In this document: piece by piece, positions 1-30,166 of the stretch
Position numbering within the stretch: position 1 is the first letter of the stretch
Layout of the letters: each line of letters starts with the position of its first letter
Source: Zobellia uliginosa
GTDB lineage: Bacteria; Bacteroidota; Bacteroidia; Flavobacteriales; Flavobacteriaceae
DNA: 64,000 nt
Direction: 5' to 3'
Assembly (NCBI RefSeq): GCF_900156625.1
Contig: NZ_FTOB01000002.1
Coordinates: 738,275-802,274 of the forward strand
Position numbers and translations under genes: made by a program
The notes under the pieces: model-generated
Databases searched by the model: none
What the model was told of the DNA's origin: nothing
Seen by the model: the letters and a program-made list of their open reading frames with translations, nothing else

Positions 1-43
1 AAAGGTGCTTTGTCTCGATACCAATTGAAATGACCTAAATCAT
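1..43 (-). promoter_or_regulatory. Leftward promoter cassette of the island regulon, cut by the window edge
   Basis: The palindrome ATGACCTAAATCAT lies at 30-43. Read leftward, bases 7 to 1 are CACCTTT, the same start as the CACCTTTG -7 box at 3515-3508, at the same 29.5-bp distance from the palindrome centre. The last base of the box would lie just outside the window. It should drive a minus-strand gene to the left of the window that belongs to the same regulon (inference). Confidence 0.6.
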
Positions 44-69
44 GCCAATGGAATAATTGGGATATTTTG

Positions 70-1341
70 TTAGATGCTATGGGAAAGAATATAGATTATG
101 CTGACAAGAATGATGGCACCGAAAGTATAGGCTACGAGTTTTCCGGTAGTTTTTGAGCCTTTGAGGAGGCTGATTCCCAGTTTGACCAGCATGTTGCTCA
201 AAACAGCGGCAATGATTACCAAAGAAGCCAAATTGAGCTTGTCGGAATCGAGTGAAAATTTAGCCATACTAATGGTAATGGCATCGGTATCGGCCAAGCC
301 TGAAATAAGGGCGGAATAATACAATCCGCTTTCGCCAAAGAATTTATTGCTATAGAAAACAGCGAATAGGATGACCACATAAATGGCTCCAAAGCCAATG
401 GCGTTCAGTATATTGAGCGGGTTGCCCAATTTGATGTTGGTATCGGGTTTTTTGGTGTCCCTTTGGATCAGTACCAAGGATACGACCAGGCATATCAAGG
501 TCAGTACGGTAAACGGAAGTGCCAAATAGGTCAAAAGGGCGCTGTTGAAGATATATACCAAAAAAGCCAATCTTGGGAACATAATGGCCGATGCAATAAT
601 GATTCCGGCAGCGTATTTTTTTGAGAGTTCGGGTGATTCCTCACTGCGGGAGGCGTAACTCCATGCAACGGCAGTACTCGATATCAGACCGCCAAGGATC
701 GCCGTTAGCAATATGCCCCTTTTAGAACCTACATATTTCACCAAAAAATAGCCAATAAAATTTAAAAAGGAGACGATTACCACTATAGAGCCGATTTCAA
801 ACGGATTCAATAAGCCATTTGATCCGTAGCTTTTGTTGGGCAGGGAGGGCAATATCAAAAGGGCGATAATGGAAAACTTGATAAAGGCAAAAAGCTCTTC
901 GGAAGTGATGTTGCTGATTACCGTTCGAAACCTTGTCTTTAGGGAAAGTAGCGTTACGAGAATGACCGATGTGGCCACTGCGTCCCTATAGTATTCGGCC
1001 GATACCATGACCCCTAAGATAAAAGTGGCGATCAAGGCTAGATTGGTGGTCAGGCCCTTGCTATATTCTTCTTGTTTTTGATAAATATGGTTGAAGGCCA
1101 AGAAGAGTATAAACGAGGCAAGGCCGATGATCAATAACCAAACCGTAAATTTGTCGGTCAGGTTTTCTAGGGTAAATCCCAATATGGCTACAATGGGAAA
1201 GGTACGGATGCCGGCAAAACCCTGATCCTTCAATTTATTATACTCCCGTTCCAAGCCGATGATAAGGCCTATTCCCATACTGATGAGTACGCCGAGAATA
1301 TAGCTGTCCATAAATTCGTTGATACCTTCAAAAGTGATCAT
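70..1341 (-). CDS. MgtC/DUF4010 family integral membrane protein
   Basis: This 423-residue protein is almost entirely hydrophobic, with about 11-12 predicted membrane spans. The N-terminal third resembles the MgtC/SapB domain, with GLIIGLEREY early and GIRTFPIVAILG around residues 43-54. The rest matches DUF4010, including GGLISSTAV in the middle and a C-terminal SALISGLADTDAIT segment. MgtC-like proteins are linked to Mg2+ limitation and membrane energetics, but the function of the DUF4010 group is not established. It is the last gene of a leftward operon, 29 bp after the UbiB-like gene. Family call is firm; substrate unknown. Confidence 0.85.
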   Translation of the reverse strand: MITFEGINEFMDSYILGVLISMGIGLIIGLEREYNKLKDQGFAGIRTFPIVAILGFTLENLTDKFTVWLLIIGLASFILFLAFNHIYQKQEEYSKGLTTNLALIATFILGVMVSAEYYRDAVATSVILVTLLSLKTRFRTVISNITSEELFAFIKFSIIALLILPSLPNKSYGSNGLLNPFEIGSIVVIVSFLNFIGYFLVKYVGSKRGILLTAILGGLISSTAVAWSYASRSEESPELSKKYAAGIIIASAIMFPRLAFLVYIFNSALLTYLALPFTVLTLICLVVSLVLIQRDTKKPDTNIKLGNPLNILNAIGFGAIYVVILFAVFYSNKFFGESGLYYSALISGLADTDAITISMAKFSLDSDKLNLASLVIIAAVLSNMLVKLGISLLKGSKTTGKLVAYTFGAIILVSIIYILSHSI

Positions 1342-1370
1342 AGGCTTTTAGATTAGTGGTCGTAGAACAT

Positions 1371-3053
1371 TTAGAATTGATCGTTCCTGAATATGGATAT
1401 CACAATATAAAATCCCAATAGGGCCGAAAGAACAAAGCCAATGGCTCCCAACAAGGGAATGCCGTTGACCAAGGGGGGCATTTGTGCCATAACCAGAATA
1501 GACGACCCGATGGAAAGGGCGGCTATGATGACGGCAAAGACCAAACGGTTTACCGATTTGCTGGTGGCGGTCTGGAATTCTTTTAAGCCCTTATGTTCAT
1601 GTACCACCACTAATTTACCATCTTTTATCTTTTTTAAGATGGTATTGAGATCTTCGGGAAGGGTGTCTAAGAGCTCATTAAAGTCTTGAAAGCGGCTTAG
1701 GTTCTTTTTAAAGAGCCTTTTTAGGTTGAACCTTCTGCCGATGATTTTCGCGGTATAGGGTTCTAGATTATCGGAAATGTTGAATGCGGGGTCTAGTTTT
1801 CGGCCTACGCCCTCTATGATGATAAGTCCCCTTATCAACATGTAAAGATAGTGGGGCAAGACTATTTTGTTTTCGTACAGTACGGTTTTGAATTGAGTGA
1901 GGGTGCTTCCGATTTTTACGTTCCCAAGGGCGGTATCGCTGACCCCTGATACCAATTCATATATATCTTGTTCGAGCTTTTTTTGATCGGGAATATCGGT
2001 TTTTACGGCAATTTTCTCAAGGAGGATCCTAATTTTTTTGACGTCCTTCCTCAAGAAATAGAGGAGAAGGTCTCCTAAGACTTCCTTGTCGTTCGGCATT
2101 ATAGTACCCATCATACCAAAATCTAAAAAGGAGATTTGTCCGCTTGTAGGAAGCACAGAAATGTTTCCCGGATGTGGGTCGGCATGAAAGAATCCGTGCT
2201 CAAGAATTTGGGCCAGGTAGAGGTCGACCCCAACTTTGGCCACGGCCGAAGGGTCAATGTTTGCCGCTTTGAGCCTATCGATTTCAGAGACTTTGATTCC
2301 GTCGAGAAATTCCATACAGATAAGGCTGTCGGTACAAAAGTGGTGATAGATTACGGGTGCATGGATCAGCTCATTGTCCTCAAAATTCCTCGCGAACCTT
2401 TCTGTGTTTTCTATTTCCCGTAAAAATTGAAGCTCCTCGTGAATACTTTGTTCAAAGGAAGCGATGATACGTACGGGCTGTAAGGCTTGTGCATGGGTAC
2501 TGTATTTTTCAAGGGCGCGGGCTACCTGTTTCATGATCAGCAGATCACTTTCTATAATTTCTCTTATAAGGGGGCGCTGGATCTTAAACACCACTTCTTC
2601 GCCGGTCAACAGTTGTGCCCGGTGCACCTGGGCCAAAGATGCAGCGGCCAAGGGTTCGGGATCTACCGAGAGAAAATGGTCGGGGAGGGAAATGTTCAGT
2701 TCTTCTTCAAGTACCTTTTCTACATCAAAGTTTTTTAATTGGGGCGCATGGTCTTGTAATTTCTCAAGCTCCTTAATAAGTTCAGGAGGAAGCATGTCTT
2801 CCCGATTGCTAAAGATCTGGCCTAGCTTGACATAGCTGGGCCCCAGATCTTCGAGTACCATACGAATACGTTCGTAAGTAGAAAAAGAAAGGTTTTTTTC
2901 GGTATCGGGGTGTTGGTTTAAGTAGGATTTTGGAATGGCCTTTGTAATACCGCTATTTGCCAAAACGTCCTCAAAACCATATTTGGCGAGGACGTTGAAC
3001 AGTGTGGCGTACCTTTTTATTTCTTGTTGCTTCGGGAGTTTGAATGCTGCCAT
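1371..3053 (-). CDS. ABC1/AarF/UbiB family atypical protein kinase
   Basis: The protein has 560 residues. The kinase-like core shows the Ala-rich loop AAASLAQVHRA, the VFKIQRP lysine strand, the catalytic FHADPHPGN motif and the metal-binding FLDFGMMG motif. Two hydrophobic segments at the C-terminus (roughly 500-555) anchor it in the membrane, as in UbiB/ADCK proteins. Family members support isoprenoid quinone synthesis or lipid homeostasis; flavobacteria use menaquinone, so a role in ubiquinone synthesis is unlikely. It lies 14 bp after the small helical gene and before the DUF4010 gene, under one upstream promoter. Confidence 0.88.
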   Translation of the reverse strand: MAAFKLPKQQEIKRYATLFNVLAKYGFEDVLANSGITKAIPKSYLNQHPDTEKNLSFSTYERIRMVLEDLGPSYVKLGQIFSNREDMLPPELIKELEKLQDHAPQLKNFDVEKVLEEELNISLPDHFLSVDPEPLAAASLAQVHRAQLLTGEEVVFKIQRPLIREIIESDLLIMKQVARALEKYSTHAQALQPVRIIASFEQSIHEELQFLREIENTERFARNFEDNELIHAPVIYHHFCTDSLICMEFLDGIKVSEIDRLKAANIDPSAVAKVGVDLYLAQILEHGFFHADPHPGNISVLPTSGQISFLDFGMMGTIMPNDKEVLGDLLLYFLRKDVKKIRILLEKIAVKTDIPDQKKLEQDIYELVSGVSDTALGNVKIGSTLTQFKTVLYENKIVLPHYLYMLIRGLIIIEGVGRKLDPAFNISDNLEPYTAKIIGRRFNLKRLFKKNLSRFQDFNELLDTLPEDLNTILKKIKDGKLVVVHEHKGLKEFQTATSKSVNRLVFAVIIAALSIGSSILVMAQMPPLVNGIPLLGAIGFVLSALLGFYIVISIFRNDQF

Positions 3054-3067
3054 ATGCTATGGGTGTA

Positions 3068-3451
3068 TTACATATACTTCGTTAGAAACCGAAAGAACTC
3101 TTTTTTAAGGTCGGCGTAAATCTGTCTTTGGGTTTCCATTTTCTCGCGAAACTGTACGTGTTTCTTGACCATGGCAACATCCATCGACTCATGGTTATCG
3201 CTGTGCTTTGAAATATTCATTTCGTGTTCCTCTATGGTTTCCTGTAAATCTTCAATAACGCCTCCGTGCAAGATAAATTCGTTTTGAAAATGTTCTAGTT
3301 GCATAAGTATGTCCTTATCGCTCCATCGGCTTACCAGTTCCTTCAATCGGTTGTTAAAAGATATTAGCTCATCTTTCCAAAAGGCCAGTTCAGATTTCCA
3401 TTGTTGATGTTCAAAATGTAAGTCGGAATTGTAAATTGTTGCTGTTTTCAT
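3068..3451 (-). CDS. Small helical (coiled-coil-like) protein, paralogue of the gene at 7931
   Basis: The 127-residue product is charged and predicted to be almost all alpha-helix. I do not recognise a named family. It shares its layout with the 143-residue protein at 7931-8362: an N-terminal [HW]xxWKS-[DE]L-[AL]F[WY] segment, a middle helix and an R/K-rich C-terminal helix. It is the first gene of a leftward operon with UbiB-like and DUF4010 genes. Its upstream region carries a palindrome plus CACCTTTG -7 box at the spacing used throughout the island. No signal peptide or membrane span is visible, so it is probably cytoplasmic. Confidence 0.75.
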   Translation of the reverse strand: MKTATIYNSDLHFEHQQWKSELAFWKDELISFNNRLKELVSRWSDKDILMQLEHFQNEFILHGGVIEDLQETIEEHEMNISKHSDNHESMDVAMVKKHVQFREKMETQRQIYADLKKEFFRFLTKYM

Positions 3452-3507
3452 AATCTTTCTATAAAATATAGGTTCGTAAAAATTTCATTTAGAATAAATG
3501 CTATGAC

Positions 3508-3551
3508 CAAAGGTGTAATTATTTGGGCACAATAGATATGACGAAAGTCAT
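3508..3551 (-). promoter_or_regulatory. Island regulon promoter for small helical protein-UbiB-DUF4010 operon
   Basis: Operator ATGAC-GAAA-GTCAT at 3538-3551 has perfect 5-bp arms. The -7 box CACCTTTG (3515 to 3508 on the minus strand) matches five of the six defined bases of TAnnTTTG. Centre-to-box distance is 29.5 bp. Confidence 0.75.
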
Positions 3552-3640
3552 GCTTCCGGCCCAAAGCCCGTTTTTATCGAGACCAGTTATATTCGAAGCT
3601 TCGGTTGGTCGGGAATTAAAGTTCGATGGAACCGTTGGCC

Positions 3641-5638
3641 TTAAGATTTATGGGTGTTTAGAAGGGATAATGGGCTGTCGTCATGGGAGCTGTTATCCTT
3701 GGTTTTATTTTCTATTCTTTTTCCTAAAAGTTTTTCCAGATCGTCTTTTTCCACAACCTCTTGCTTAAGTAGAAGTTGGGCTAGGTTTTCCAATTCGTTT
3801 CGGTGCTTCAACAATAGCGTTTTGGTTTTCTCATAGGCCCTATGGATCAGGGCTTGTGCCTCATTGTCTATCAGTTCGGCCATGGCTTCGCTGTAAGGTT
3901 TGCCTAGCAGTTGATTGTTTTGACCGGAGGAGTCATAAAAACTCATTGGTCCTATCTTTTTGTCAAGTCCGTAATAAGAAACCATGGCATAGGCCTGCTT
4001 GGTGACTTTTTCCAGATCGTCTAGGGCGCCTGATGAGATTTCATCAAATACAATTTCCTCTGCGGCCCGCCCGCCTAAGGAGGCGCACATCTGATCGATG
4101 AACTGTGCCTTGGTAACAATTTGTCTTTCTTCGGGGAGGTACCAGGTAGCACCTAACGATTTGCCCCTCGGAATAATCGATACTTTTACCAAAGAATCAA
4201 CATGTTTTAAATACCAGCTTACTACGGCATGACCCGCTTCATGATAGGCTACGGTTTCTTTTTCTTTTGGGGATATGATTTTACTTTTTCGTTCCATTCC
4301 GCCTACGATACGGTCCCGTGCCTCGAGAAAATCGTGGTAGTGTACTGTTTTTTTCTTTTTTCGGGCGGCAATAAGGGCGGCCTCGTTACAGATATTGGCA
4401 ATGTCGGCCCCTGAAAATCCAGGACTTAATTCGGCCAAGCTTACCACATTTACATCCTTGGCCAGTTTGAGTGGGCGAAGGTGGACCTTGAATATTTCCA
4501 TGCGCTCCTCCTTGGTGGGGAGTTCGAGATAAATATGGCGATCGAACCTTCCGGGGCGCAAGAGGGCTTTGTCCAGTACGTCGGGGCGGTTGGTAGCGGC
4601 CAAGACAATGACCCCGGTATTCGGGCCGAAACCGTCCAATTCGGTCAGGAGTTGGTTAAGGGTGTTTTCCCTTTCGTCGTTAGACTGAAATCCGCCGCCT
4701 TTACCACGTGAGCGGCCCACGGCATCTATTTCGTCGATAAAAATAATGCTCGGGGTCTTTTCCTTCGCCCTTTTGAAGAGGTCGCGAACCCGAGAGGCTC
4801 CGACGCCGACGAACATTTCAACGAACTCGGAACCGGACATAGAAAAGAAAGGTACTTGGGCCTCTCCCGCCACGGCTTTGGCTATCAGTGTTTTTCCCGT
4901 TCCCGGTGGGCCTACGAGCATAACTCCCTTGGGAATTTTAGCGCCCAATTCGGTATAGGTTTCAGGGTGTTTGAGAAAGTCTACGACCTCCATAACCTCG
5001 GCCTTAGCTTCCTTGAGACCGGCTACGTCATTAAAGGTGACGGTACTCTTGGTTCCCTTTTCCACCAGTTTTGCCGTTGACTTGCCCATGTTGAGCATTG
5101 AACCACCCATAGGACCTCCGCTTCCCATGCGCTTGAGTATAAAGAACCAGAATAGGATCAATAGGGCAACGGGAAAAATCCATGATAACAGGCTTATCCA
5201 GCTTGTTCTGTTTTGGTATTGAATGTCGATTTTGTCCTCAGGCGAAAAATCGGCTTGTGCCGTCTCTAGCTTACCCTCAAAATTCTCTACCGAGCCGATG
5301 GTTATGCGGTATTTCGGACTTTCAACGGAGCTGAACCAACTAGGGTCTTGACCTGTGGGGCCGGGGTCTTTATCGGCTTGGTTTTTGGTGTAGATCTCTG
5401 CGAACTCCCTGTTGACCACGGTGATTTTAGAAACCTTCTGTTGCGTCAAAAGTGAATCTTGAAGAAAGGTCCAACTGATTTCCTTGGCACCTGAAATAGG
5501 GTTGGAGAAAAAGGTAAATGCCATTAAAAAGGCAAAAAGTGTCAAGTAGATCCAATAATATCCTAGTCCGCCAGAAGGCGGGTTTGGCTTTGGGTCTTTC
5601 GCTCCCTTGGGGGTATTTGTGTTCGATTGCTGTTTCAT
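3641..5638 (-). CDS. ftsH: ATP-dependent zinc metalloprotease FtsH
   Basis: This 665-residue membrane AAA+ protease has an N-terminal span near 28-45, a periplasmic domain, and a second span near 150-168. The AAA module follows, with Walker A GPPGTGKT at 243-250, Walker [10 protein letters not shown] at 298-306 and the second region of homology near 350-370. The zinc-binding HEAGH is at 466-470. FtsH degrades unassembled membrane proteins and some regulators. It starts 1 bp after the AhpD-like gene, so the two are co-transcribed from the promoter at 6047-6090. It may be a second, stress-linked paralogue rather than the housekeeping copy (inference from context). Confidence 0.95.
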
Positions 5639-5639
5639 A

Positions 5640-5987
5640 TTATTCCATTACCACAAATTGGTTCAATGCTTCCAAAGCTTCACAGCCATACATAAGGGCC
5701 GGGCCTCCGCCCATCATTACCGCAACGCCTATGGTTTCTAGAATTTCCTCGGCACTGGCTCCCGATTTTAAGGCGTCGTGAACGTGAAAGGCAATGCAAC
5801 CGTCACAGCGGACCGTAATGGCGATTCCGAGGGCAATGAGTTCTTTGGTCTTTGAAGAAAGCACGCCTTCAGCGGTACTGGCCTTGTGTAGACCGTCGAA
5901 AGCCCCTATGGTTTGGGGTATTTTGCTGCCCAATTCCTTTACCAGTTGTGAGAGGTCGTTATACCTTTTTGAATAGTCTTTAATCAT
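5640..5987 (-). CDS. Carboxymuconolactone decarboxylase/AhpD-like family protein
   Basis: The 115-residue protein carries the AhpD-type CxxC motif in the segment RCDGCIAFH (residues about 60-68), followed by the helix HDALKSGASAEEILE. This is the core of the CMD/AhpD family, whose redox-active members act as peroxidase-coupled disulfide reductases. The length fits single-domain members. It heads a two-gene leftward unit with ftsH. A role in thiol or peroxide defence is plausible but rests only on the motif. Confidence 0.85.
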   Translation of the reverse strand: MIKDYSKRYNDLSQLVKELGSKIPQTIGAFDGLHKASTAEGVLSSKTKELIALGIAITVRCDGCIAFHVHDALKSGASAEEILETIGVAVMMGGGPALMYGCEALEALNQFVVME

Positions 5988-6046
5988 GGCGCTATATTTT
6001 TCAGTTTAAACTGTTGAAGTGATTTATCGTGTACTTAAAACAAGCT

Positions 6047-6090
6047 CAAAACTATTTTAAAGGATTATAGGAAACTATGATTTAAATCAG
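6047..6090 (-). promoter_or_regulatory. Island regulon promoter for AhpD-like gene and ftsH
   Basis: The palindrome TGATTTAAATCA (6078-6089, inside the 14-mer 6077-6090) sits 29.5 bp before an exact -7 box TAGTTTTG (6054 to 6047 on the minus strand). Confidence 0.8.
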
Positions 6091-6219
6091 GGAAGGAAGG
6101 GAATTTATGCGTTTGGAAGGGGGAAACAACGCTAGGCATGGCCATAATAGGGTAGAAGCCTATACCAGATAAGGCCGGGTATAACATTTTCTTCTAGGCT
6201 TTATAAAACTATGAAGCAA

Positions 6220-6263
6220 CTGACCCAGGTCATTTCCGGCCAAACGAGCAGCACATACCTTTG
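6220..6263 (+). promoter_or_regulatory. Island regulon promoter for WG-repeat gene
   Basis: The operator core TGACCCAGGTCA (6221-6232) has perfect 5-bp arms. It lies 29.5 bp before the exact -7 box TACCTTTG (6256-6263). The start codon at 6289 follows with a short leader. Confidence 0.8.
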
Positions 6264-6288
6264 GGTGAACACAAAAAATTAATGAAAG

Positions 6289-6942
6289 ATGAAACACTTA
6301 CTTATTATCACATGTTTATTGTTGATACCTTATTTAGGTATTTCACAGACGGTAGACCAAATCAATAAACCCACAGTGGCCGAACTCGACCAAATCACGC
6401 CTTTTAGTGATGGTTTGGCGGCGGTTAGAAAGGGAGACCAATGGGGATTTATTGATGAAGAAGGACAATTGGTTATTGATTTTAGGAATGACTTGGTTTG
6501 GAATAAAAATCCACAAACCGATAATCTGGGGGTCGAAGGTATGGGGTATCCCCAGTTCAAGAACGGACGCTGCGTGGTTAGGGACGTAAAAGAAGATGGT
6601 ATTGCGCGTTACGGATTTATAGATAAAAAGGGAAACATGGCCATACCCGCTGAATTTTTGAACGTTAGCCCCTTCGTTGATGGTCATGCTGTGGGGATTT
6701 ATGAAAGAAAATCGCTTAGAGGAAAAAACACCTTTCAGTTAAAGATTTACGATTATGACTTTACCGAGGTCGTGGTCAATGAAGCGGGGGAAATGATATG
6801 GCCCGTACAAGAACGGCAGAACATCGTAATGTCTGGTAAACTATATAAGTTACCGGAATTACAGGCCAAGATGATTTCGGACCGTCTCTTGGCCGTAAAG
6901 GACAAGGCGAACAAATGGAAAATTGTAAAGCCTAAATTTTAG
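6289..6942 (+). CDS. Exported WG-repeat protein
   Basis: The 217-residue product begins with a clear signal peptide (about 19 residues, ending near GISQT). It contains WG-type repeats: FSDGLAAVRKGDQWGFIDEEG near 38-58, and YGFIDKKGNMAIP near 108-120 followed by FVDGHAVG. WG repeats form beta-strand-rich modules of unknown binding partner, common in Bacteroidetes. The gene stands alone between divergent ahpD-like/ftsH and the downstream usp gene, with its own island promoter. It is probably periplasmic or surface-exposed; function unknown. Confidence 0.8.
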   Translation: MKHLLIITCLLLIPYLGISQTVDQINKPTVAELDQITPFSDGLAAVRKGDQWGFIDEEGQLVIDFRNDLVWNKNPQTDNLGVEGMGYPQFKNGRCVVRDVKEDGIARYGFIDKKGNMAIPAEFLNVSPFVDGHAVGIYERKSLRGKNTFQLKIYDYDFTEVVVNEAGEMIWPVQERQNIVMSGKLYKLPELQAKMISDRLLAVKDKANKWKIVKPKF

Positions 6943-7004: not shown

Positions 7005-7048
7005 ATGACACAGGTCATGGGGTTTCTTGAGACCCTAGGGTACTTTTG
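7005..7048 (+). promoter_or_regulatory. Island regulon promoter for universal stress protein gene
   Basis: Operator ATGAC-ACAG-GTCAT at 7005-7018 and exact -7 box TACTTTTG at 7041-7048, spacing 29.5 bp. The expected transcription start is about 7053-7056. This lies downstream of the ATG at 7005, so that ATG cannot be the translation start. Confidence 0.85.
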
Positions 7049-7088
7049 GTTTAATGGGATTATAAAACCTTATTCAAAGACAAATTAT

Positions 7089-7874: not shown

Positions 7875-7930
7875 CCTTGATTTATATTGAAGAAAAGGGA
7901 AATCATTGTTTTCTATAAAATAGTTACTAC

Positions 7931-9493: not shown

Positions 9494-9510
9494 AAGGGTC
9501 TATTTTTATT

Positions 9511-10557: not shown

Positions 10558-10579
10558 TTTGGATGCTTTAGTTTGTATT

Positions 10580-18377: not shown

Positions 18378-18378
18378 T

Positions 18379-19107: not shown

Positions 19108-19169
19108 CAAGGATGGGAATTCCTTTTTTTAATTAATTCAAAACTGGTTTAACAATAAAATTTAACACT

Positions 19170-19439: not shown

Positions 19440-19446
19440 TTAAAAC

Positions 19447-20193: not shown

Positions 20194-20215
20194 ATAAAAC
20201 GGAAATCGAAATGAA

Positions 20216-21745: not shown

Positions 21746-21763
21746 GCACCAAAAATAAGAGCC

Positions 21764-23408: not shown

Positions 23409-23452
23409 TGAAGGTATTACAGTATTAAAAAACGCCCTATGATTTATATCAT
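23409..23452 (-). promoter_or_regulatory. Island regulon operator upstream of the PNPOx-fold gene
   Basis: Operator ATGAT-TTAT-ATCAT at 23439-23452 has perfect arms. At the standard spacing the minus strand reads TACCTTCA (23416 to 23409), four of six defined -7 bases. The start codon at 23230 is about 170 bp away, so the leader would be long. The rest of 23231-23521 shows nothing else clear. Confidence 0.5.
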
Positions 23453-23521: not shown

Positions 23522-24502
23522 TTATTCTTTTTGATTCTTTTCTTGTCGTTTTTCCTGTTTTTTGAAATAGCCACGGGTCAAAAAATTATGTTTTAAGGCT
23601 TCCATGTTTTCGTTGAATTTGACCAGTCCCTCATCTGCGTTCTTTACGGAGTTTTGAAGCTGGTGTACCAAGGTGGTATCCGTTGTCAAATAGTTTATGG
23701 CGCCTTTCCCTTTGTTTATCCGGTCGACTACCGCGTTGAGGTTTTTTGCGGTCCCCTCAATTTCAACGGATGCGTTTTCAAGGTTATCGATTACATTCCG
23801 GATTTTTGCCCCGGAAAGGGAGTCGCCCAATAGGGTTCCGACAACACTTTCCTTTGAATTGAAATGTTGTACAAGATCATTCAGTTTATGCATGGTCGTA
23901 CGGGCATCGTTACTGGTCTGTTTCAGGTTGGCCAAGGTCTGTTTTAAGTCGTCTCCCATAAGCGTGTCATTGAGTAAACGACCCAAGGTTCCGCCTCCCT
24001 TATTGATAGAACGGGTAATATGAAGGAGCTGCTCGGTCAATAGGGCGGCATTTTCATTGGTTACGCTTAAGGTATTCATCATATCTGCAGTGGCCACTCC
24101 ACTAAACGAATTGATTTCATCCCCGGATTGAACATAGGATGCTTCGCCTATGCCAGGAACGATGTTAATGATCATACTCCCCACTAGGCCATCTGAGCCG
24201 ATATTGGCTATGGCATTTTTTTTGATATGTTTTTGCATTTTGGCATCGATGAGCATATCTACCTCGATCGTGGTGTCGTTGATCATTTCAATATCCTTTA
24301 CCGTACCGATGCCGATACCGGCATAACGAACATTGTTGCCATTCTGCAACCCCCGTATGTTCTTAAAGGTGACCTTAAGGGTAAAGCTATTGCCGAACAT
24401 GTTTTGTCGGTTTCCGATGAAATAGATGACCAGAACCAATAAGGCCGTACCTATGAGGACAAAAATCCCTAACCTAAATTTCTCCGATGCTGATTTTTCC
24501 AT
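23522..24502 (-). CDS. mlaD: MlaD-like MCE domain lipid-transport protein
   Basis: The 326-residue protein has one N-terminal membrane span (about 10-29) and an MCE domain with the typical VTFKNIRGLQNGNNVRYAGIGIGTV (near 44-68) and GLVGSMIINIVPG (near 105-117). A long helical, Asn-rich C-terminus follows. MCE proteins shuttle phospholipids between inner and outer membranes. It is the third gene of a leftward MlaE-MlaF-MlaD set, 3 bp after the ATPase. Confidence 0.9.
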   Translation of the reverse strand: MEKSASEKFRLGIFVLIGTALLVLVIYFIGNRQNMFGNSFTLKVTFKNIRGLQNGNNVRYAGIGIGTVKDIEMINDTTIEVDMLIDAKMQKHIKKNAIANIGSDGLVGSMIINIVPGIGEASYVQSGDEINSFSGVATADMMNTLSVTNENAALLTEQLLHITRSINKGGGTLGRLLNDTLMGDDLKQTLANLKQTSNDARTTMHKLNDLVQHFNSKESVVGTLLGDSLSGAKIRNVIDNLENASVEIEGTAKNLNAVVDRINKGKGAINYLTTDTTLVHQLQNSVKNADEGLVKFNENMEALKHNFLTRGYFKKQEKRQEKNQKE

Positions 24503-24505
24503 AAT

Positions 24506-25294
24506 CTATTTTTTAAAGAAGGCCTCTATTTTGGGGTCCTTAGATTGTGAGAGCTGGGCGTAGGTACCTTCGGCGTAGTTGATACCATCGACCAATAAGA
24601 TCATTCGATCCGAGATGACCCTGGCACAATCGACATCGTGTGTAATGATCAATGAAGAGGTGCCATATTTTGACTGTATGTTGCGCATTAATTCAATGAT
24701 TTCCTTGGAGGTAATCGGGTCTAAGCCGCTTGTAGGCTCATCGTAGAGAATGATTTTTGGGCGTAAGATCAAGGTTCGGGCCAAGGCTATCCGTCTTTTC
24801 ATTCCTCCCGACAGTTCTTCGGGCATCAAGTCGATGGTATGTGCCAGCCCCACATTTTCCAAGGCTTCGACCACCAAGGCCTTGGTATCTGTCTGTTTTC
24901 CGAATTTCTCCTTGTGCCGTCGTAAAGGGAACTCCAAATTCTCTCGTACCGTCATTGAATCGTACAATGCGCTTCCCTGAAATAGGAAACCGATATCGGA
25001 GCGGAGTTCATCGAGTGTTTCTCGATCTAGGTTCTTAATTTCCTTCCCCATAACCGAAATATATCCCGTATCGGGTTGTATAAGACCTACCAAGCACTTT
25101 ATCATCACTGATTTTCCTGAGCCCGATTTCCCCATGACCACTAGGTTCTCGCCCTTATGCAATTTCATATGGAAGCCATTGAGCACCTTATGGCCCGAAA
25201 AACTCTTATAGAGATCTTTGATTTCCATTATTACCTCTTTTGTAGGGGATTTGGAACTATCTTTTACAGCTATGTTTTTCTCTTCTTCCATCAT
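24506..25294 (-). CDS. mlaF: MlaF-like ABC transporter ATPase
   Basis: The 262-residue protein contains Walker A GKSGSGKS near 55-62, the signature LSGGMKRR near 161-168 and Walker B IILYDEPTSGLDP near 180-192, followed by the switch His in IITHD. This is the nucleotide-binding part of an Mla-type lipid ABC transporter. It starts 4 bp inside the permease gene, so the two are translationally coupled. Confidence 0.92.
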   Translation of the reverse strand: MMEEEKNIAVKDSSKSPTKEVIMEIKDLYKSFSGHKVLNGFHMKLHKGENLVVMGKSGSGKSVMIKCLVGLIQPDTGYISVMGKEIKNLDRETLDELRSDIGFLFQGSALYDSMTVRENLEFPLRRHKEKFGKQTDTKALVVEALENVGLAHTIDLMPEELSGGMKRRIALARTLILRPKIILYDEPTSGLDPITSKEIIELMRNIQSKYGTSSLIITHDVDCARVISDRMILLVDGINYAEGTYAQLSQSKDPKIEAFFKK

Positions 25295-26067
25295 ACGTCA
25301 TAAAATATATTCGAGATAAAAACCGCTACAAAATCTATAACGAACAAGAGCAAGGAAGCCATTACTACGGCCGTATTGGCGGCAATACCGACACCTGCCG
25401 TTCCCTTTTTACTGTAAAAGCCCTTGTAGCAACCAACGATTCCAATGGCAAAACCAAAGAAGAAGGTCTTGATGGTAGCCGGTATAATGTCGGTATAGGT
25501 CAATACCTCAAAAACAGTATTGAAATAGAGCTGAAAGGAAACGTTTCCTTCTATATTTTCAACCAAGGCCGATCCGAAAAGGGCAAGGGCATCACTCACG
25601 ACAACAAGAAGGGGGAGCATCATTACAGATGCCATAACACGTGTGACCACCAAAAATTTAAAAGGGTTGGTACCCGATACTTCCATGGCGTCAATCTGTT
25701 CGGTAACGCGCATCGAGCCCAGTTCCGCACCTATGCCCGAAGATATCCTTCCAGCACAGACCAGGGCGGTGATTACGGGGCCGAGTTCTCGTACGATCGA
25801 GATTCCCACCATATTGGGCATCCAAGAAACCGCACCGAACTGTATCATGGTCGGTCGTGATTGTAGGTCCAACACCAGACCTATGATAAAACCGGTGACC
25901 AATACCAAGGAGAGGGATCGATAGCCAATTTGATAACACTGCCTCAAAAACTCATTGAATTCATACGGTGGCCGCAAGGCTTCCTTAAAAAAACGAGCCG
26001 CGAAATAGGAGAGCTCACCGATCTCGATCAGCCATTGCCTTATCTTTTTTGGAGTCTTGAAGTTCAA
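25291..26067 (-). CDS. mlaE: MlaE-like ABC transporter permease
   Basis: The 258-residue integral membrane protein has about five to six spans. It matches MlaE with SIVRELGPVITALVCAGRISSGIGAELGSMRVTEQIDAMEV over about residues 89-131 and GFYSKKGTAGVGIAANTAVV near 218-237. It is the first gene of the mlaEFD unit, with an exact island promoter just upstream. Confidence 0.93.
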   Translation of the reverse strand: MNFKTPKKIRQWLIEIGELSYFAARFFKEALRPPYEFNEFLRQCYQIGYRSLSLVLVTGFIIGLVLDLQSRPTMIQFGAVSWMPNMVGISIVRELGPVITALVCAGRISSGIGAELGSMRVTEQIDAMEVSGTNPFKFLVVTRVMASVMMLPLLVVVSDALALFGSALVENIEGNVSFQLYFNTVFEVLTYTDIIPATIKTFFFGFAIGIVGCYKGFYSKKGTAGVGIAANTAVVMASLLLFVIDFVAVFISNIFYDV

Positions 26068-26101: not shown

Positions 26102-26145
26102 CAAAAGTAAAGGTCTGGCAAGGGAGTTTGGATGATTTGGGTCAT
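26102..26145 (-). promoter_or_regulatory. Island regulon promoter for mlaEFD
   Basis: Operator ATGAT-TTGG-GTCAT at 26132-26145 and exact -7 box TACTTTTG (26109 to 26102 on the minus strand), spacing 29.5 bp. Confidence 0.8.
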
Positions 26146-26176: not shown

Positions 26177-26220
26177 CTGATGTGGGTCATTCTTGCTGGC
26201 ATAGGCAAGGTTTAATTTTG
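26177..26220 (+). promoter_or_regulatory. Island regulon promoter for the ClC gene
   Basis: Operator core TGATGTGGGTCA at 26178-26189 and exact -7 box TAATTTTG at 26213-26220, spacing 29.5 bp. It is divergent from the mlaE promoter with independent operators. Confidence 0.8.
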
Positions 26221-26251: not shown

Positions 26252-27592
26252 ATGAAATCAATGGGCGAAAGAAACGGAACAAGTAGTAAAGATCGGTCGG
26301 TAAACCTTGACGTAAGGAATTATAAGCTTTTGTTGAATGCCCTTTTGATAGGAGTGATCACCGGCCTTTTGAGTTCGCTTTTTAGATTGGTGCTCTCGCG
26401 GTTATCGGCTTTGAGGACAACCTTTCAAATAGGAGGGGCCGATCAGCTTTGGCAAGATTGGTTTTGGTCTATGCTTTTTACTTTTTTTGGTATATGGTTT
26501 TCGATATTCTTGGTAAAAAAATATGCGCCTGAAGCCGCGGGCAGCGGCATTCAGGAAATAGAAGGGGCCCTTGACGGTGTGCGACCTGTGAGGTGGCGTA
26601 GGGTATTACCGATAAAGTTTTTTGCCTCAATATGCTCCTTGAGTAGCGGCTTGCTATTAGGCCGTGAAGGACCGACAGTCCAGATTGGAGCCAACGTAGG
26701 GAAAATGGTGGAGGATGTTTTTAAGCAATCCGTGGAAGAAGATAACCCTTTGATCAGTACAGGGGCCGCATCTGGTTTGGCAAGTGCCTTTAATGCTCCT
26801 TTTTCGGGAATTATTTTTGTCATAGAAGAAATGAACGGGCATTTTAAGTTCAATTTTTATTCGCTTGCGGCACTTATGATCGGTGCCGGTTCTGCCGATA
26901 TGGTGGTTAGGTTCTTGGTTGGAAGCGGGCCGATACTAAAAACCACGATTTTTACTTTTGAAAATTTAACGGGACTATGGCTATTTGTGGTATTCGGATT
27001 GATACTCAGCTGCATGGGAATTGCCTTTAATAAACTATTGATCGAAGCTTTGGATTTCTTTAAAAAAATAAGGATAAACCCTATTGTCATTGCTTTAAGT
27101 ATCGCCTTTGTCATTACTGCCGTAGGGTTGTATTCCGAAGATATGATCGGTTCGGGATATAGCACCATTGCGAATGCTTACAACGATTCCTTTACCTTGA
27201 AATTTCTACTGGCCCTGTTTGTGGTTCGGTTTTTCCTTTCGATTATGAGTTATGGGTCAGGGGTGCCAGGAGGTATTTTTACCCCCCTTATAACGTTAGG
27301 GGTAATTTCCGGAATGCTTTTTGGCGGGATGGCCCAATATTTTTTTCCGGACCTAGTTCAAGACCCGGCTATCTTTGGTGTAGCGGGTATGGCCGGTATC
27401 TTTGCCTCGACCATTAGGGCCCCGCTTACGGGCTTGGCCCTTTCAGTTGAAATGACGGCAAACTATGAGTTGATTTTACCTTTGATTTTTACTGCGGTTA
27501 CGGCTTCGGTCTGTACCACAATGCTGGGTAATGCACCGATTTACTCCATTTTGCTCAAACGAGTTTTACACAAGGGGGAGACGGCCGTTTAG
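26252..27592 (+). CDS. ClC-family chloride channel or H+/Cl- antiporter
   Basis: The 446-residue protein has 10 or more hydrophobic segments and all three ClC signatures: GSGIQEIE near 97-104, GREGPTVQIGA at 137-147, and GVPGGIFTP near 350. Glu139 in GREGP is the gating glutamate, and Glu193 in FVIEEM aligns with the proton-pathway glutamate of E. coli ClC, so exchange activity is possible. A purine-rich GGGAGAG lies before the start codon; an alternative ATG is 9 bases later. It is divergent from mlaE and convergent with the GH15 gene. Confidence 0.92.
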   Translation: MKSMGERNGTSSKDRSVNLDVRNYKLLLNALLIGVITGLLSSLFRLVLSRLSALRTTFQIGGADQLWQDWFWSMLFTFFGIWFSIFLVKKYAPEAAGSGIQEIEGALDGVRPVRWRRVLPIKFFASICSLSSGLLLGREGPTVQIGANVGKMVEDVFKQSVEEDNPLISTGAASGLASAFNAPFSGIIFVIEEMNGHFKFNFYSLAALMIGAGSADMVVRFLVGSGPILKTTIFTFENLTGLWLFVVFGLILSCMGIAFNKLLIEALDFFKKIRINPIVIALSIAFVITAVGLYSEDMIGSGYSTIANAYNDSFTLKFLLALFVVRFFLSIMSYGSGVPGGIFTPLITLGVISGMLFGGMAQYFFPDLVQDPAIFGVAGMAGIFASTIRAPLTGLALSVEMTANYELILPLIFTAVTASVCTTMLGNAPIYSILLKRVLHKGETAV

Positions 27593-27659
27593 GGCAGATG
27601 CTTCAGGGTAAGCGCAATGCTTCCTATGTAGTTAGGTAGAGAAGGCCCTTTCTTAAAAC

Positions 27660-30032
27660 TCATTCGTTTTCAATACGCACCGAAAAATTTTTGCATTCCC
27701 ATTTCTTCGCTTCTTTCCAATAAAATGTGAACTCCAGGGATGTGGCCTCTTTGTGGCAGGGCTGAATGTCGATAATAAATAGTCCGATATTAAGGTGCTT
27801 TGCCTGCGTTTGATAGGTGGTTTTCCAATGGTCGTCCGTCCAATGTAGGGTACAATCGGCCAAGGTCTCGACCCGTAATGTTTTTCCCTTGGGTGAGATG
27901 CGGGTTCCGTTATCAAATCGCCACACTTGGTAATCCGATATGGTTTTTTTGCATAGATACCGTTCACAGGTTTGTTCGGGCATATCAAATACCTTTTTAT
28001 GGTCTATAGAAATACAGAGTTTGATGTATTCGGCATGGGCCCATGTCAGGGGCATTGCCGACCCTGTATGTCTACCCCGATATAGTCCCTTTTCGGGTAT
28101 ATCGTCTTTGTCCCATATCTGTTCGGGCAGTAAGCCGTTATTGGCAAAGGCATCCATAGCATTTAGGAGCTTCCGGGCCGATTCGATATGGCCCGCGGCG
28201 ATTTCATAGTGGGCCCTTTCTCCTGTCAATAGGGGCCATGCCCGACCTTTTCCCGTACCGTCATAAGGATCGCCGTTTTCATGTTCCCCATAGCCGTCAT
28301 TATTGTAGCGGTACCAACAGCTGCCATTGGGGGTATCGACCTTTAGTTCGGCATCGATTACTTTTAGGGTATTTAAGATTCTTTGGTCATCGGGTGCGCG
28401 AAGGCCGAACCTGACCAAGGCCAATGCGTCTACGCTGATTAGTTCGTTAATGGGCGTTTTGCCATGGTCAAAATGGTGATTTTTTAAATTGATCGTTCGG
28501 TCTCCCAATTCAGCAGCGGGAATATCGGTAAAAGGGTTAATGCGGATGTAATAGCCGTCTACCCCATGTTTTTGCGCCAAGGGCGTACCGGTCACATAGG
28601 TTCGGTATTCGATAGTATCGTTCCAGGTATCGGCTGTCTCACGACAATAGGCAGCTAAGGTTTCTTCCCCGTTTATTTCGGCCAGTTCTGCCCCGGCCAA
28701 TAAGGCGGCAATTTCGGTGGCCATGGTAAAGGGCGAAAAACCACTTTCTTCTTCCCATCGGTCTTGGTCGGTATAAGGGCCGTTTATCAATAGGAAGGTA
28801 AGGGCCTTTTTGGCCAAGGGCCAATATCGTTTCATACGATCTTTTCCAATGGTGTTGCGCAAATAACCTTTGAGCATTTCCAAAATAGGCAAGGCAATTT
28901 GGTCCATTTGAATGCCGGTCCAGTTCGGTTCCCCTTGAAGCCACATATTCTGCGGCCAACTCCCATCGGCATTTTGGGTAGACATCAGATAGTTTACAAT
29001 ACGCGATATGTCCGCCTTGGTTTCAAGGGCGTTGAACCCACCGGCACTTTCCACAAGGTCACGGGGCCATACAACGTGGTAACCGCTTTTATCGGAGTCT
29101 CCCTTTGTGTTTCCCCAAGGAATGGAAAGGCTCGCTATAATGCCACCGGGAAAGTTTTTGGCCTCGTGCATACGTAGGGTAGCGGCACTTGTCTTAAAAT
29201 TTTTGGCAGCTATTTTGGGCAAGGTATTTTGCCAGGTTTGCCACTCTTGTATGTATCGTCTTTTTGCCGAGTTAAAACCGTTTAAGATACTTGATCTGGC
29301 ATGATTGGCGGCCTCTAAATGGGTACGGCCAAAACTTATGGCCAAAACAAAGTCTTTTTCGCTTATGTCTATTTCGCCGGTAAGGGCGATATTTCCATGG
29401 GAAGCACGCTCATATTGCCATTTTAATTTACGGTGTTGGTGTAAATCCGTCCATCCGTCCGAAATACCTACAAAGCCGACGGACCGATGCAACCATTTGG
29501 AGGAACAGGCCATGGCTACGGCTATATCGCCATTTTTGGCAAATAGCATTTCATCCCCCTTATACTCGCCAAGCCAACCCGAGTTGTGGCCCCCTTCATT
29601 GTTTAAATGGGGTGCGAGCAAAGCGAATAATTGAAAAGGGGATTCGGGATGGATCGGTTCGAACCTTATATGTTGCAGAATAGTATTGCGAAAAGGATCG
29701 GCAATGATTTCCTTGGTGATCTTAAATTTCCCGGAGGGATCGCTATTGACGATATGATAGGCGGGAATCCCCTCTTCGATTGTTTTTGTAAAGTGTTCCG
29801 TATCTCTTTTTTCCTCAGAAAAAAATCCATGTCCATCCGTAACGATGAGTCCCATATCACGTATACAGGCAATATCTTCACGAGGGTAGTAGGCTTCGTT
29901 CAGAATACCGTGGCTAAGGGTGAAAGTTACGTCGGAAGCCGAATTGAGGGCCTTTCCGATTCCTGATTTCGTACTAGAGCTCCATCTGGCCTCAATTCCT
30001 GGAGCACCTGGTGCTTCTCCGTTTTTAGACAT
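27660..30032 (-). CDS. GH15 glucoamylase/glucodextranase (glucan 1,4-alpha-glucosidase)
   Basis: The 790-residue protein combines an N-terminal beta-sandwich (LSHGILNEAYYPREDI near 38-53) with a GH15 (alpha/alpha)6 barrel. Barrel motifs are YHVVWPRDLVESAGGF, WPQNMWLQGEPNWTGIQMDQ, a likely acid Glu in EEESGFSPFTMATE, and a likely base Glu in RAWPLLTGERAHYE. It has no signal peptide, so it probably acts on cytoplasmic glycogen or maltodextrins and releases glucose for the glk in this island. It is convergent with the ClC gene and has its own island promoter. Confidence 0.92.
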   Translation of the reverse strand: MSKNGEAPGAPGIEARWSSSTKSGIGKALNSASDVTFTLSHGILNEAYYPREDIACIRDMGLIVTDGHGFFSEEKRDTEHFTKTIEEGIPAYHIVNSDPSGKFKITKEIIADPFRNTILQHIRFEPIHPESPFQLFALLAPHLNNEGGHNSGWLGEYKGDEMLFAKNGDIAVAMACSSKWLHRSVGFVGISDGWTDLHQHRKLKWQYERASHGNIALTGEIDISEKDFVLAISFGRTHLEAANHARSSILNGFNSAKRRYIQEWQTWQNTLPKIAAKNFKTSAATLRMHEAKNFPGGIIASLSIPWGNTKGDSDKSGYHVVWPRDLVESAGGFNALETKADISRIVNYLMSTQNADGSWPQNMWLQGEPNWTGIQMDQIALPILEMLKGYLRNTIGKDRMKRYWPLAKKALTFLLINGPYTDQDRWEEESGFSPFTMATEIAALLAGAELAEINGEETLAAYCRETADTWNDTIEYRTYVTGTPLAQKHGVDGYYIRINPFTDIPAAELGDRTINLKNHHFDHGKTPINELISVDALALVRFGLRAPDDQRILNTLKVIDAELKVDTPNGSCWYRYNNDGYGEHENGDPYDGTGKGRAWPLLTGERAHYEIAAGHIESARKLLNAMDAFANNGLLPEQIWDKDDIPEKGLYRGRHTGSAMPLTWAHAEYIKLCISIDHKKVFDMPEQTCERYLCKKTISDYQVWRFDNGTRISPKGKTLRVETLADCTLHWTDDHWKTTYQTQAKHLNIGLFIIDIQPCHKEATSLEFTFYWKEAKKWECKNFSVRIENE

Positions 30033-30122
30033 ATTTTGATAGGATGTATTGAGGTTTTTTATTTGCTTATGGCTTCCTGTCCATCAGCATACATTAGATA
30101 AATAGGAGCCTCAATTTTAGGC

Positions 30123-30166
30123 GAAAGTTACTTCTTGTTAGGGTGGTGGAACATGATTTGGATCAG
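30123..30166 (-). promoter_or_regulatory. Island regulon promoter for the GH15 gene
   Basis: Operator core TGAT-TTGG-ATCA at 30154-30165 with -7 box TAACTTTC (30130 to 30123 on the minus strand, five of six defined bases), spacing 29.5 bp. This is the last copy seen; I found none from here to 64 kb. Confidence 0.7.

What the first reader, a model, noticed from the sequence alone, without database searches (positions are those of the whole stretch)
1..30166. A 44-bp promoter cassette repeated eleven times unifies a 30-kb island
The palindrome ATGAY-N4-RTCAT occurs at 30, 3538, 6077, 6220, 7005, 15770, 15801, 23439, 26132, 26177 and 30153. In every case I looked exactly 29.5 bp from the palindrome centre toward the gene and read the 8 bases: five are exact TAnnTTTG (6054-, 6256+, 7041+, 26109-, 26213+), four match at least five of the visible defined bases or all but the first (7-, 3515-, 15837+, 30130-), and two match four of six (15747-, 23416-). 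The fixed spacing puts the palindrome near -41.5, a class II activator position, and the half-site with 4-nt spacer is like Fnr. Genes served are stress, fermentation, N-ATPase, Mla, ClC and GH15. The regulator itself is not in the window. I know of no description of this regulon, but could not search.
Basis: partly seen in the sequence, partly recalled or inferred. Interest (0 to 1): 0.88.

Follow-up and report, generated by a model that had tools for sequence, protein, structure and literature searches.

The report
Crp/Fnr-type promoter cassettes, stress island
A marine bacterium's stress-gene island is wired by one repeated DNA switch that recurs across its family, and the likely controller, just outside the window, is a fused signal-receiver/DNA-binding protein paired with a kinase that carries a predicted blue-light sensor.

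Summary
The cassette is real and larger than reported. All 11 palindromes share TGAY-N4-RTCA; seven match the stated 14-mer, four carry C at the distal outer base. Nine of 11 have a -7 box of at least 5/6 letters exactly 23 bp from the 12-bp core; shuffles of the stretch average 0.01 such cassettes. The genome holds 46 cassettes (one mismatch allowed) against 1 reversed-pattern control, 14 of them in a 47-kb island reaching 16.5 kb left of the window. In 199 Flavobacteriaceae genomes: 1402 exact cassettes against 29 controls.

The missing regulator lies 8 kb left of the window: a 355-aa receiver + cNMP-fold + Crp-type HTH protein, overlapping a PAS/LOV/GAF histidine kinase whose operon carries its own cassette. 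Exact cassettes are about 45-fold denser around its relatives than elsewhere in those genomes. With the box at -12 to -5 (PMC9723704), the palindrome centre falls at -41.5, the class II position. It is not Fnr. A second, Fnr-like regulator probably reads the same operator. In 12 of the 15 closest operons (this one included) the kinase has a LOV domain with the photoactive-type cysteine. Light control is predicted, untested.

The parts
1..43 (-). cassette 1: ATGATTTAGGTCAT + CACCTTTG (last box base just outside the window); points at a TolC/HlyD/ABC-2-like efflux gene set left of the window (names from sequence reading)
   Evidence: genome C13:738274-738316
3508..3551 (-). cassette 2: ATGACTTTCGTCAT + CACCTTTG; 56 bp before the ORF at 3451 (small helical protein, then ABC1/UbiB-like and MgtC-like genes)
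6047..6090 (-). cassette 3: CTGATTTAAATCAT + TAGTTTTG; 59 bp before a carboxymuconolactone-decarboxylase-like gene, then FtsH
6220..6263 (+). cassette 4: CTGACCCAGGTCAT + TACCTTTG; 25 bp before a WG-repeat protein gene
7005..7048 (+). cassette 5: ATGACACAGGTCAT + TACTTTTG before the universal stress protein gene (the mechanical ORF start at 7005 lies inside the cassette; the next Met before the Usp domain is at 7089)
15740..15783 (-). palindrome ATGACCTAGGTCAT before pyruvate phosphate dikinase; box weak, 4/6 (GAGATTCG)
15801..15844 (+). cassette: ATGACTTAGGTCAT + TACTTTTA; 25 bp before the alternate F1F0 (N-type) ATPase operon
23409..23452 (-). palindrome ATGATATAAATCAT before a pyridoxamine-oxidase-like gene; box weak, 4/6 (TACCTTCA)
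26102..26145 (-). cassette: ATGACCCAAATCAT + TACTTTTG; 34 bp before mlaE
26177..26220 (+). cassette: CTGATGTGGGTCAT + TAATTTTG; 31 bp before a ClC chloride channel gene
30123..30166 (-). cassette: CTGATCCAAATCAT + TAACTTTC; 90 bp before the GH15 glucan glucosidase gene; right end of the island
70..6942 (.). genes beside cassettes 2-4: MgtC-like, ABC1/UbiB-like, small helical protein, FtsH, CMD (- strand) and WG-repeat protein (+ strand)
   Evidence: the small helical protein has no Pfam hit
7005..8362 (+). universal stress protein gene and a following small helical protein gene
8420..15695 (-). glucokinase, DeoC/LacD-family aldolase, PfkB kinase, histidine phosphatase (phosphoglycerate-mutase-like), 2-hydroxyacid dehydrogenase and PPDK genes
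15870..22669 (+). alternate F1F0 (N-type) ATPase operon, beta subunit first
   Evidence: TIGR03305 826.4 bits over cut-off 752
23522..26067 (-). Mla-type genes (MlaE permease by Pfam; ATPase and MlaD-like by sequence reading)
26252..27592 (+). ClC chloride channel gene
27660..30032 (-). GH15 glucan 1,4-alpha-glucosidase-like gene (TIGR01535 719.6 bits, just under its cut-off of 741.9)

Best explanation
Each cassette is a promoter switched on by a Crp/Fnr-type dimer bound at -41.5. The dimer reads TGAY-N4-RTCA and sits against the -33 region, in class II contact with the sigma-A polymerase that reads TAnnTTTG. The island's own activator is the fused response regulator encoded at C13:729012-730079, 8 kb left of the window (receiver + cNMP-fold + Crp HTH). 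The PAS/LOV/GAF histidine kinase in the same operon (C13:725756-729034) phosphorylates Asp52 of its receiver; this frees or dimerises the Crp half, which activates the island, its own operon and some scattered genes. The cNMP-fold half is not expected to bind cAMP, so control comes from phosphorylation, much like FixL-FixJ-FixK with FixJ's receiver fused straight onto a FixK-like protein. A second, Fnr-like protein (C6:101546-102235) has the same recognition-helix pattern and probably runs the classical low-oxygen set (nap, nos-type, hemN, ccoI, Usp) through the same operator, so the two regulons overlap. Shown by computation: architecture, spacing, conservation, position of the regulator, conserved key residues. 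Inferred: binding, phosphotransfer, activation and the signal.
For: (1) Own genome: 19 exact sites at spacer 23 against 13 spread over the other 30 spacers; 46 against 1 reversed control with one mismatch, 14 of 46 in 0.9% of the genome. (2) Family: 1402 exact cassettes in 173 of 199 genomes against 29 reversed controls (summed and by hand). (3) Regions chosen only for the regulator: 400 kb from 11 other genomes gave 121 boxes of at least 5/6 at spacer 23 against 0-8 at each other spacer; exact-site density about 45 times that of the rest of those genomes. Around 80 loci of the wider family: 398 at spacer 23 against 3-22 at each other spacer, in 76 of 80 loci, 370 of 398 with an ORF start no more than 300 bp downstream against 19% for random positions. 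(4) The kinase-regulator operon has its own cassette 19-446 bp upstream of the kinase ORF in 11 of 15 cases examined; a gene with a HisKA motif lies directly upstream of 91 of 93 regulators. (5) Genomes with the fused regulator carry more cassettes: mean 10.9 against 5.7 among genomes of at least 2.5 Mb, 83 and 73 genomes, p about 3e-10; 16.1 for the 12 best-matching holders, own genome included. (6) The same-genus genome G001 lacks the close regulator (best E 1e-25), matches only FtsH and ATP-synthase pieces of the first 19.9 kb and has 4 cassettes. (7) In 110 regulator sequences Asp52, Lys104, Arg305, Glu317 and Arg321 are each 110 of 110. In the paralogue, Glu and Arg align with Glu and Arg of Fnr's helix and Ile replaces the Ser between them. 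(8) F. psychrophilum places the box at -12 to -5 (PMC9723704).
Against: No binding, start-site or expression data exist for these genes here. Two regulators in the genome share the helix pattern, and sequence does not separate their targets cleanly: island sites favour C/G at the ends of N4 (10 of 13, against 10 of 27 elsewhere, p 0.04; all close-relative islands against the own genome elsewhere p 0.21). Genomes without the fused regulator still have cassettes (mean 5.7), so another protein must read them. 15770 and 23439 have weak boxes. No cassette was found before the kinase in 4 of 15 cases (G168, G054, G063, G180). Several window genes are not consistently served in relatives (PPDK 3 of 7, PfkB 3 of 6, pyridoxamine-oxidase-like 2 of 4), and N-ATPase, ClC and GH15 do not appear among clusters served in two or more genomes. 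Many of the 80 loci come from a few genera, and genome counts are not corrected for relatedness.
Confidence: 0.72

Rival explanations
1. The Fnr-like protein (C6:101546-102235) alone reads all cassettes, island included; the fused regulator merely sits there or acts elsewhere.
For: Same recognition-helix pattern, own cassette at C6:101478, low-oxygen-type neighbours (ccoI, Usp; read from sequence); cassettes persist in genomes without the fused regulator.
Against: Cassettes pile up around the fused regulator in 11 other genomes and in 76 of 80 further loci; holders carry about twice as many; in the same-genus genome G001 the close regulator and nearly all of the 19.9 kb tested are missing together; the regulator operon carries its own cassette in 11 of 15 cases.
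Confidence: 0.17
2. Refinement of the best explanation rather than its opposite: both proteins bind the same sites and the island integrates two signals (phosphorelay and oxygen/redox), either one sufficient or one repressing.
For: Same helix key residues and overlapping operator code; Fnr-type target genes appear beside the fused regulator in the wider family: ccoN/O 11 of 14 loci, ccoI 4 of 6, hemN 3 of 30 (ccoN/O identity, hemN and ccoI read from sequence).
Confidence: 0.4
3. The palindrome is a repressor operator or a chance AT-rich palindrome, not an activator site.
For: No direct test; the palindrome would lie against the -33 region.
Against: One exactly fixed spacing, one-sided placement before ORFs, shuffles and reversed controls; a repressor site would not need one fixed distance.
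Confidence: 0.05

Closest known systems
FixL-FixJ-FixK cascade of Alphaproteobacteria
   Same: A PAS kinase and receiver feeding a cysteine-free Crp/Fnr-type activator that controls cco, hemN and its own regulators (PMC4999443, passages)
   Different: Here the receiver is fused to the Crp/Fnr protein, so there is no separate FixJ and no second transcription step; the partner kinase is LOV/PAS/GAF; served genes near the close relatives are mostly stress-type; sigma-A box of the Bacteroidota type
Fnr class II promoters
   Same: TGA..TCA palindrome centred at -41.5; Glu and Arg of the recognition helix kept
   Different: Outer base A/C...T instead of T...A (the Fnr TTGAT site is recalled); Ile in place of Ser; no N-terminal cysteine cluster in the fused regulator
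LOV histidine kinases (LovK-LovR, LOV-HK)
   Same: LOV domain with the conserved cysteine in a histidine kinase; LovK-LovR acts on the general stress pathway in Caulobacter (PMC4844311, passages)
   Different: HisKA-type kinase with several PAS-type stretches (four by TIGR00229) and one GAF; partner is a Crp/Fnr-output response regulator
NmpRSTU of Myxococcus xanthus
   Same: Two-component control of an oxygen-utilisation regulon (PMC11841059, abstract and section list)
   Different: NtrC-type response regulator with sigma-54 promoters
Mycobacterial DosR dormancy regulon (recalled)
   Same: Two-component regulon rich in universal stress protein genes (recalled)
   Different: LuxR-type output and GAF-haem kinases (recalled); unrelated operator

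Membership tests
Crp/Fnr superfamily (fused regulator) | cNMP-binding fold followed by Crp-type HTH | tested here: met
   Pfam PF00027 3.7e-22 and PF13545 1.8e-13, over cut-offs
Response regulators | Receiver domain with phosphoacceptor Asp and Lys | tested here: met
   PF00072 1e-28; Asp52 and Lys104 110 of 110 (roles of residues recalled)
Response regulators with OmpR-type or LuxR/FixJ-type output | Winged-helix or LuxR output domain | tested here: not met
   Only HTH_Crp_2/Crp matched in the C-terminal part
Fnr (fused regulator) | Fe-S cysteine set and curated Fnr score | tested here: not met
   No N-terminal cysteine cluster (sequence); NF008365 66.2 bits against cut-off 228
Fnr (C6 paralogue) | Fe-S cysteine set and curated Fnr score | tested here: inconclusive
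   Three of the four cysteines align, one is Asn (which four are ligands is recalled); NF008365 is its best NCBIfam match but at 104.4 bits against 228
CRP (fused regulator) | cAMP-binding residues (recalled CRP Glu72, Arg82) and curated CRP score | tested here: not met
   Mostly Phe/Gln/Tyr and Glu at the positions I matched by eye; NF008732 91.2 bits against 266
FixK (fused regulator) | Curated FixK score | tested here: not met
   NF050806 77.9 bits against 300
FixL (partner kinase) | Haem-binding PAS domain | not tested
   Only the curated FixL model was seen: NF041777 136.6 against 850
Class II activator promoter | Site centred at -41.5 from a mapped start | tested here: inconclusive
   Geometry fits with the box at -12 to -5 in F. 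psychrophilum; no start sites mapped in this organism
LOV photoreceptor (kinase) | LOV domain with cysteine in the NCRFLQ motif and flavin-contact Asn/Gln | tested here: met
   Best solved match to the segment 4e-34, and blue-light receptors and phototropins among the hits; NCRFLQ and both Asn kept, but the last Gln is His in this genome (roles of residues recalled)
LOV photoreceptor (kinase) | Flavin binding and photocycle | not testable with these tools
   Needs purified protein
Curated blue-light kinase families (NCBIfam) | Curated score | tested here: not met
   NF052306 127.1 against 450; NF052652 160.7 against 250

The most novel reading that the evidence does not exclude
A blue-light-gated, Crp/Fnr-type stress regulon: a LOV/PAS/GAF histidine kinase phosphorylates a receiver-Crp fusion (a FixLJ-FixK cascade compressed into two overlapping genes) that switches on a self-regulated accessory island of Hsp20, Usp, patatin, N-type ATPase, Mla, ClC and sugar-metabolism genes through one operator shared with an Fnr-like protein, so that surface-living marine flavobacteria combine light and oxygen on one promoter code.
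Probability: 0.38. Interest if true: 0.87.

Novelty: new variant of a known kind. Interest (0 to 1): 0.73.

Why it matters
Flavobacteria are major polymer degraders in the sea (recalled), yet little of their transcription control is known. This gives one readable promoter code (TGAY-N4-RTCA, 23 bp, TAnnTTTG) present in 173 of 199 family genomes, names the probable regulators, and predicts many target genes, some without annotation. It also offers a case where a two-component receiver is fused directly to a Crp/Fnr protein, and, if the LOV domain works, links light to a stress and energy programme. Reporter fusions and a few gene deletions would test it.

Tried and rejected
Rejected: (a) chance palindromes (shuffles and reversed controls); (b) an island-only code: 32 of 46 sites in the genome lie elsewhere; (c) a cAMP receptor or Fnr identity for the fused regulator. 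Other Crp-family proteins as readers: of the nine HTH matches in the genome, the fused regulator and the Fnr-like protein have the Glu-x-x-Ile-Arg pattern; four others were read (two of 210 aa lack the Glu, two shorter ones have Glu-x-x-Ser-Arg), and three (C8:151591, C12:68103, C19:42739) gave no match there and were not examined, so further readers are not excluded. Led nowhere: literature searches for a Crp/Fnr regulon or a receiver-Crp regulator in Bacteroidota; no paper describing this system appeared in those listings. One search looked for the box only. Four papers were opened: PMC9723704 (abstract, section list, passages), PMC11841059 (abstract, section list), PMC4844311 and PMC4999443 (passages). 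In the main text of PMC9723704 the words Fnr and Crp do not occur; its supplement was not seen. No structure prediction was run.

Rows dropped or uneven: searches used ORFs of at least 80 aa, boxes of at least 5/6, and accepted ORF starts from 120 bp before to 300 bp after the box end (124 of 134 and 370 of 398; random positions 19% in both). One search compared 13 island sites (the edge site 30- fell out) with 27 of the 32 other sites: four have a broken core and one intact site (C20:25590) was left out by oversight. In one search the 85 holders are genomes with best E below 1e-50, one of them (G194) a partial match of 244 residues. The 110 regulators contain duplicates of the same organism (for example G129 and L098). 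The 11 genomes include G180, whose regulator is only about 50% identical. Only 80 of 206 relatives were kept. HisKA was recognised by a short motif, not by a profile.

Full report
WHAT WAS CLAIMED AND WHAT IS THERE. A pattern search finds seven exact palindromes (0.16 expected). The other four coordinates (6077, 6220, 26177, 30153) share the 12-bp core TGAYN4RTCA but have C at the gene-distal outer base. The gene-proximal T is kept in all eleven. In 1-30200 there are 11 cores against a shuffle mean of 1.3, and 8 cassettes of at least 5/6 against 0.01; the rest of the window has 1 core and no cassette.

WHOLE GENOME. The window lies in a 5.3-Mb genome at C13:738275-802274. Its fused regulator is closest to those of Zobellia uliginosa (86%) and Z. 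barbeyronii (85%), then Kriegella aquimaris (83%), so the organism is probably a Zobellia or near it (inference). With the spacer free from 8 to 38 there are 32 exact hits, 19 of them at spacer 23. At spacer 23 with one mismatch there are 46 hits against 1 for the reversed pattern. Fourteen of these lie in C13:721811-768439, 0.9% of the genome. The island therefore starts 16.5 kb left of the window: Hsp20, PLD-type and patatin genes, the kinase-regulator operon, YtxH and unknown genes. Sites outside the island precede genes that I read as napD/napA, moeA-like, hemN, cytochrome c and nosZ-like, an Fnr-like gene with ccoI, universal stress proteins, PEP carboxykinase and a P-type ATPase; others precede unknown genes, and for some no ORF close downstream was found (names from sequence reading).

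THE REGULATOR. C13:729012-730079 encodes 355 aa with a receiver, a cNMP-binding fold and Crp HTH domains, all over Pfam cut-offs. Its gene overlaps C13:725756-729034, a 1092-aa histidine kinase with PAS-type domains, GAF, HisKA and HATPase. An exact cassette lies 164 bp before the kinase ORF. Strong, essentially full-length relatives occur in 85 of 199 family genomes (threshold as), and a gene with a HisKA motif lies directly upstream, on the same strand, of 91 of 93 regulators in the gene-called loci. In 110 aligned relatives Asp52, Lys104, Arg305, Glu317 and Arg321 never vary, and Ile320 holds in 108. The second regulator with this helix, the Fnr-like protein at C6:101546-102235, was aligned with a solved Fnr: Glu and Arg match, and Ile stands where Fnr has Ser. 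Fnr's Ser is thought to contact the outer T of TTGAT (recalled), so Ile there would fit the loss of the outer T in these operators (inference).

FAMILY-WIDE TEST. The exact cassette occurs 1402 times in 173 of 199 family genomes; the reversed pattern 29 times (totals and, for the control, by hand). In a phylum-wide draw of 118 genomes it is present in 51: the two same-order genomes hold 6 and 10, the 16 other same-class genomes 0-9, the 89 remaining ones outside the family 0-3. Genomes of at least 2.5 Mb with the fused regulator carry 10.9 on average, those without 5.7; the 12 best-matching holders carry 16.1. Regions chosen only because they flank the fused regulator are dense in cassettes. 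In 400 kb from 11 genomes, 121 boxes of at least 5/6 sit at spacer 23 and 0-8 at any other spacer. In 80 further loci (1.52 Mb; one of them the same organism as G129), 398 sit at spacer 23 and 3-22 at any other, with a small secondary excess at 24. Of the 398, 370 have an ORF start at most 300 bp downstream on the right strand, as do 124 of 134 in the close set; random positions reach 19%. 76 of 80 loci have at least one site.

SHARED TARGETS. Around the close relatives, this genome included, the cassette precedes Hsp20 in 10 of 10 genomes that hold the gene there, YtxH in 7 of 7, a patatin gene in 7 of 9, an unknown 167-aa protein in 7 of 9, Usp in 4 of 4, CMD in 4 of 4, the WG-repeat protein in 4 of 4; less often the small helical protein (4 of 7), PPDK (3 of 7), PfkB (3 of 6), MlaE (2 of 3) and the pyridoxamine-oxidase-like gene (2 of 4). 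N-ATPase, ClC and GH15 are not among the clusters served in two or more genomes. The kinase operon has a cassette upstream in 11 of 15 cases. In the wider set: Usp 67 of 69, an unknown 134-aa protein 49 of 50, an S30AE ribosome-hibernation-type protein 12 of 15, ccoN/O 11 of 14, thioredoxin 11 of 42, hemN-like 3 of 30 (identities, hemN read from sequence). F. psychrophilum raises cbb3 oxidase under oxygen limitation (PMC9723704), which fits the cco targets. The island is accessory: the Kriegella-type genome G129 carries the first 16.4 kb of the window collinearly at 70-83% DNA identity, G168 and G011 carry parts, and the same-genus genome G001 matches only FtsH and a piece of ATP synthase in the 19.9 kb tested.

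MECHANISM. In F. psychrophilum the sigma-A box TAnnTTTG occupies -12 to -5 (PMC9723704, passages). Half of the 12-bp core (6), 23 and 8 bases then put the palindrome centre at -41.5, the class II position. The proximal T (91-96% in the regulator neighbourhoods, 67% at the 27 other sites of this genome) and the following T-rich bases leave 19-22 bases to the box, where the -33 element of Bacteroidota promoters is expected (recalled); the activator would sit against or replace it. Some single palindromes have boxes on both sides and could serve two divergent promoters (C13:731078, C6:101478). cAMP is unlikely to be the ligand of the fused regulator: the positions matched by eye to the recalled CRP residues Glu72 and Arg82 are mostly Phe/Gln/Tyr and Glu. 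Phosphorylation of Asp52 by the neighbouring kinase is the most likely switch (inference).

THE LIGHT QUESTION. Residues 385-505 of the kinase match solved LOV-type sensors best, blue-light receptors and phototropins among them, and contain GKNCRFLQ with the two Asn that contact flavin (recalled). The last conserved Gln is His here and in G108, but Gln in the two other Zobellia proteins. Among 15 distinct close operons (regulator at least 54% identical, this one included), 12 kinases have a LOV segment with the cysteine, two (G063, G168) gave no LOV match beyond weak PAS similarity, and one contig (L100) is cut inside the segment. In the wider group (77 regulators under 54%) a LOV segment with the cysteine turned up next to a regulator in one locus (L165, Gillisia lutea) and a LOV-like segment with Leu in its place in three (L106, L114, L118). 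Blue light as an input is thus a specific, testable prediction mainly for the close group; Leu in place of the cysteine would mean a sensor without the usual photochemistry (inference). Flavin binding, photocycle and signalling are untested.

COMPARISON. FixL-FixJ-FixK is the nearest functional analogue (PMC4999443, passages): FixK lacks Fe-S cysteines and controls cco, hemN and its own cascade. Here the receiver and the Crp/Fnr protein are one chain. None of the 25 best of 106 NCBIfam matches to the fused regulator reaches its cut-off; PhoB, CRP, FixK and Fnr models fall far below. LOV kinases acting on stress pathways are known (LovK-LovR; PMC4844311, passages), but with other partners. I found no paper on this system in nine searches of an open-licence library, so the statement that it is undescribed is limited to those searches.

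LIMITS. No experiment. The two candidate regulators cannot be separated by operator sequence: island sites prefer C/G at the ends of N4 (10 of 13 against 10 of 27; p 0.04), and the close-relative islands differ from the wider set (69 of 134 against 87 of 367; p about 9e-9) but not clearly from the other sites of this genome (p 0.21); sites within a lineage are not independent. Genome counts are likewise not corrected for relatedness. Three Crp-family matches of the genome were not examined.

Noticed in passing
window 3068-3451, 7931-8362; genome C13:732624-733031; L118:13535-13978: Small helical proteins (127-147 aa) with no Pfam hit where tested (three of four; NCBIfam also none for the two in the window) and a shared W.S...F..D pattern; three copies in this island, served by cassettes or beside served genes. 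A family of unknown function that may mark this regulon.
   Followed up: partly
window 15870-22669: Alternate F1F0 (N-type) ATPase operon behind a stress-type promoter.
   Followed up: partly
genome C13:725756-729034, residue 492 of the kinase: The last conserved Gln of the LOV domain is His in this genome (and in G108) but Gln in the two other Zobellia kinases, so its light response may differ.
   Followed up: no
L106:7998-10004, L114:8082-10004, L118:3798-5720: LOV-like segments with Leu in place of the photoactive-type cysteine in kinases next to more distant receiver-Crp regulators (Flagellimonas/Allomuricauda records): possibly LOV domains turned to another signal.
   Followed up: no
loci L096-L175: A small second peak at spacer 24 (22 sites of at least 5/6, 16 exact) beside the main one at 23.
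   Followed up: no
genome C13:731078, C6:101478, C13:281230: Single palindromes with boxes at the right distance on both sides, apparently able to serve two divergent genes with one dimer.
   Followed up: no
genomes G056, G011, G037: Close and more distant versions of the receiver-Crp regulator lie about 23-25 kb apart on the same contig, two related regulators in one neighbourhood.
   Followed up: no
genome C6:101546-102235: The Fnr-like paralogue keeps three of the four aligned Fnr cysteines; the fourth position is Asn, raising the question of a differently ligated cluster.
   Followed up: no
L099:14197-14601 and relatives: An unknown 134-aa protein follows a cassette in 49 of 50 loci that hold it near the regulator.
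   Followed up: no
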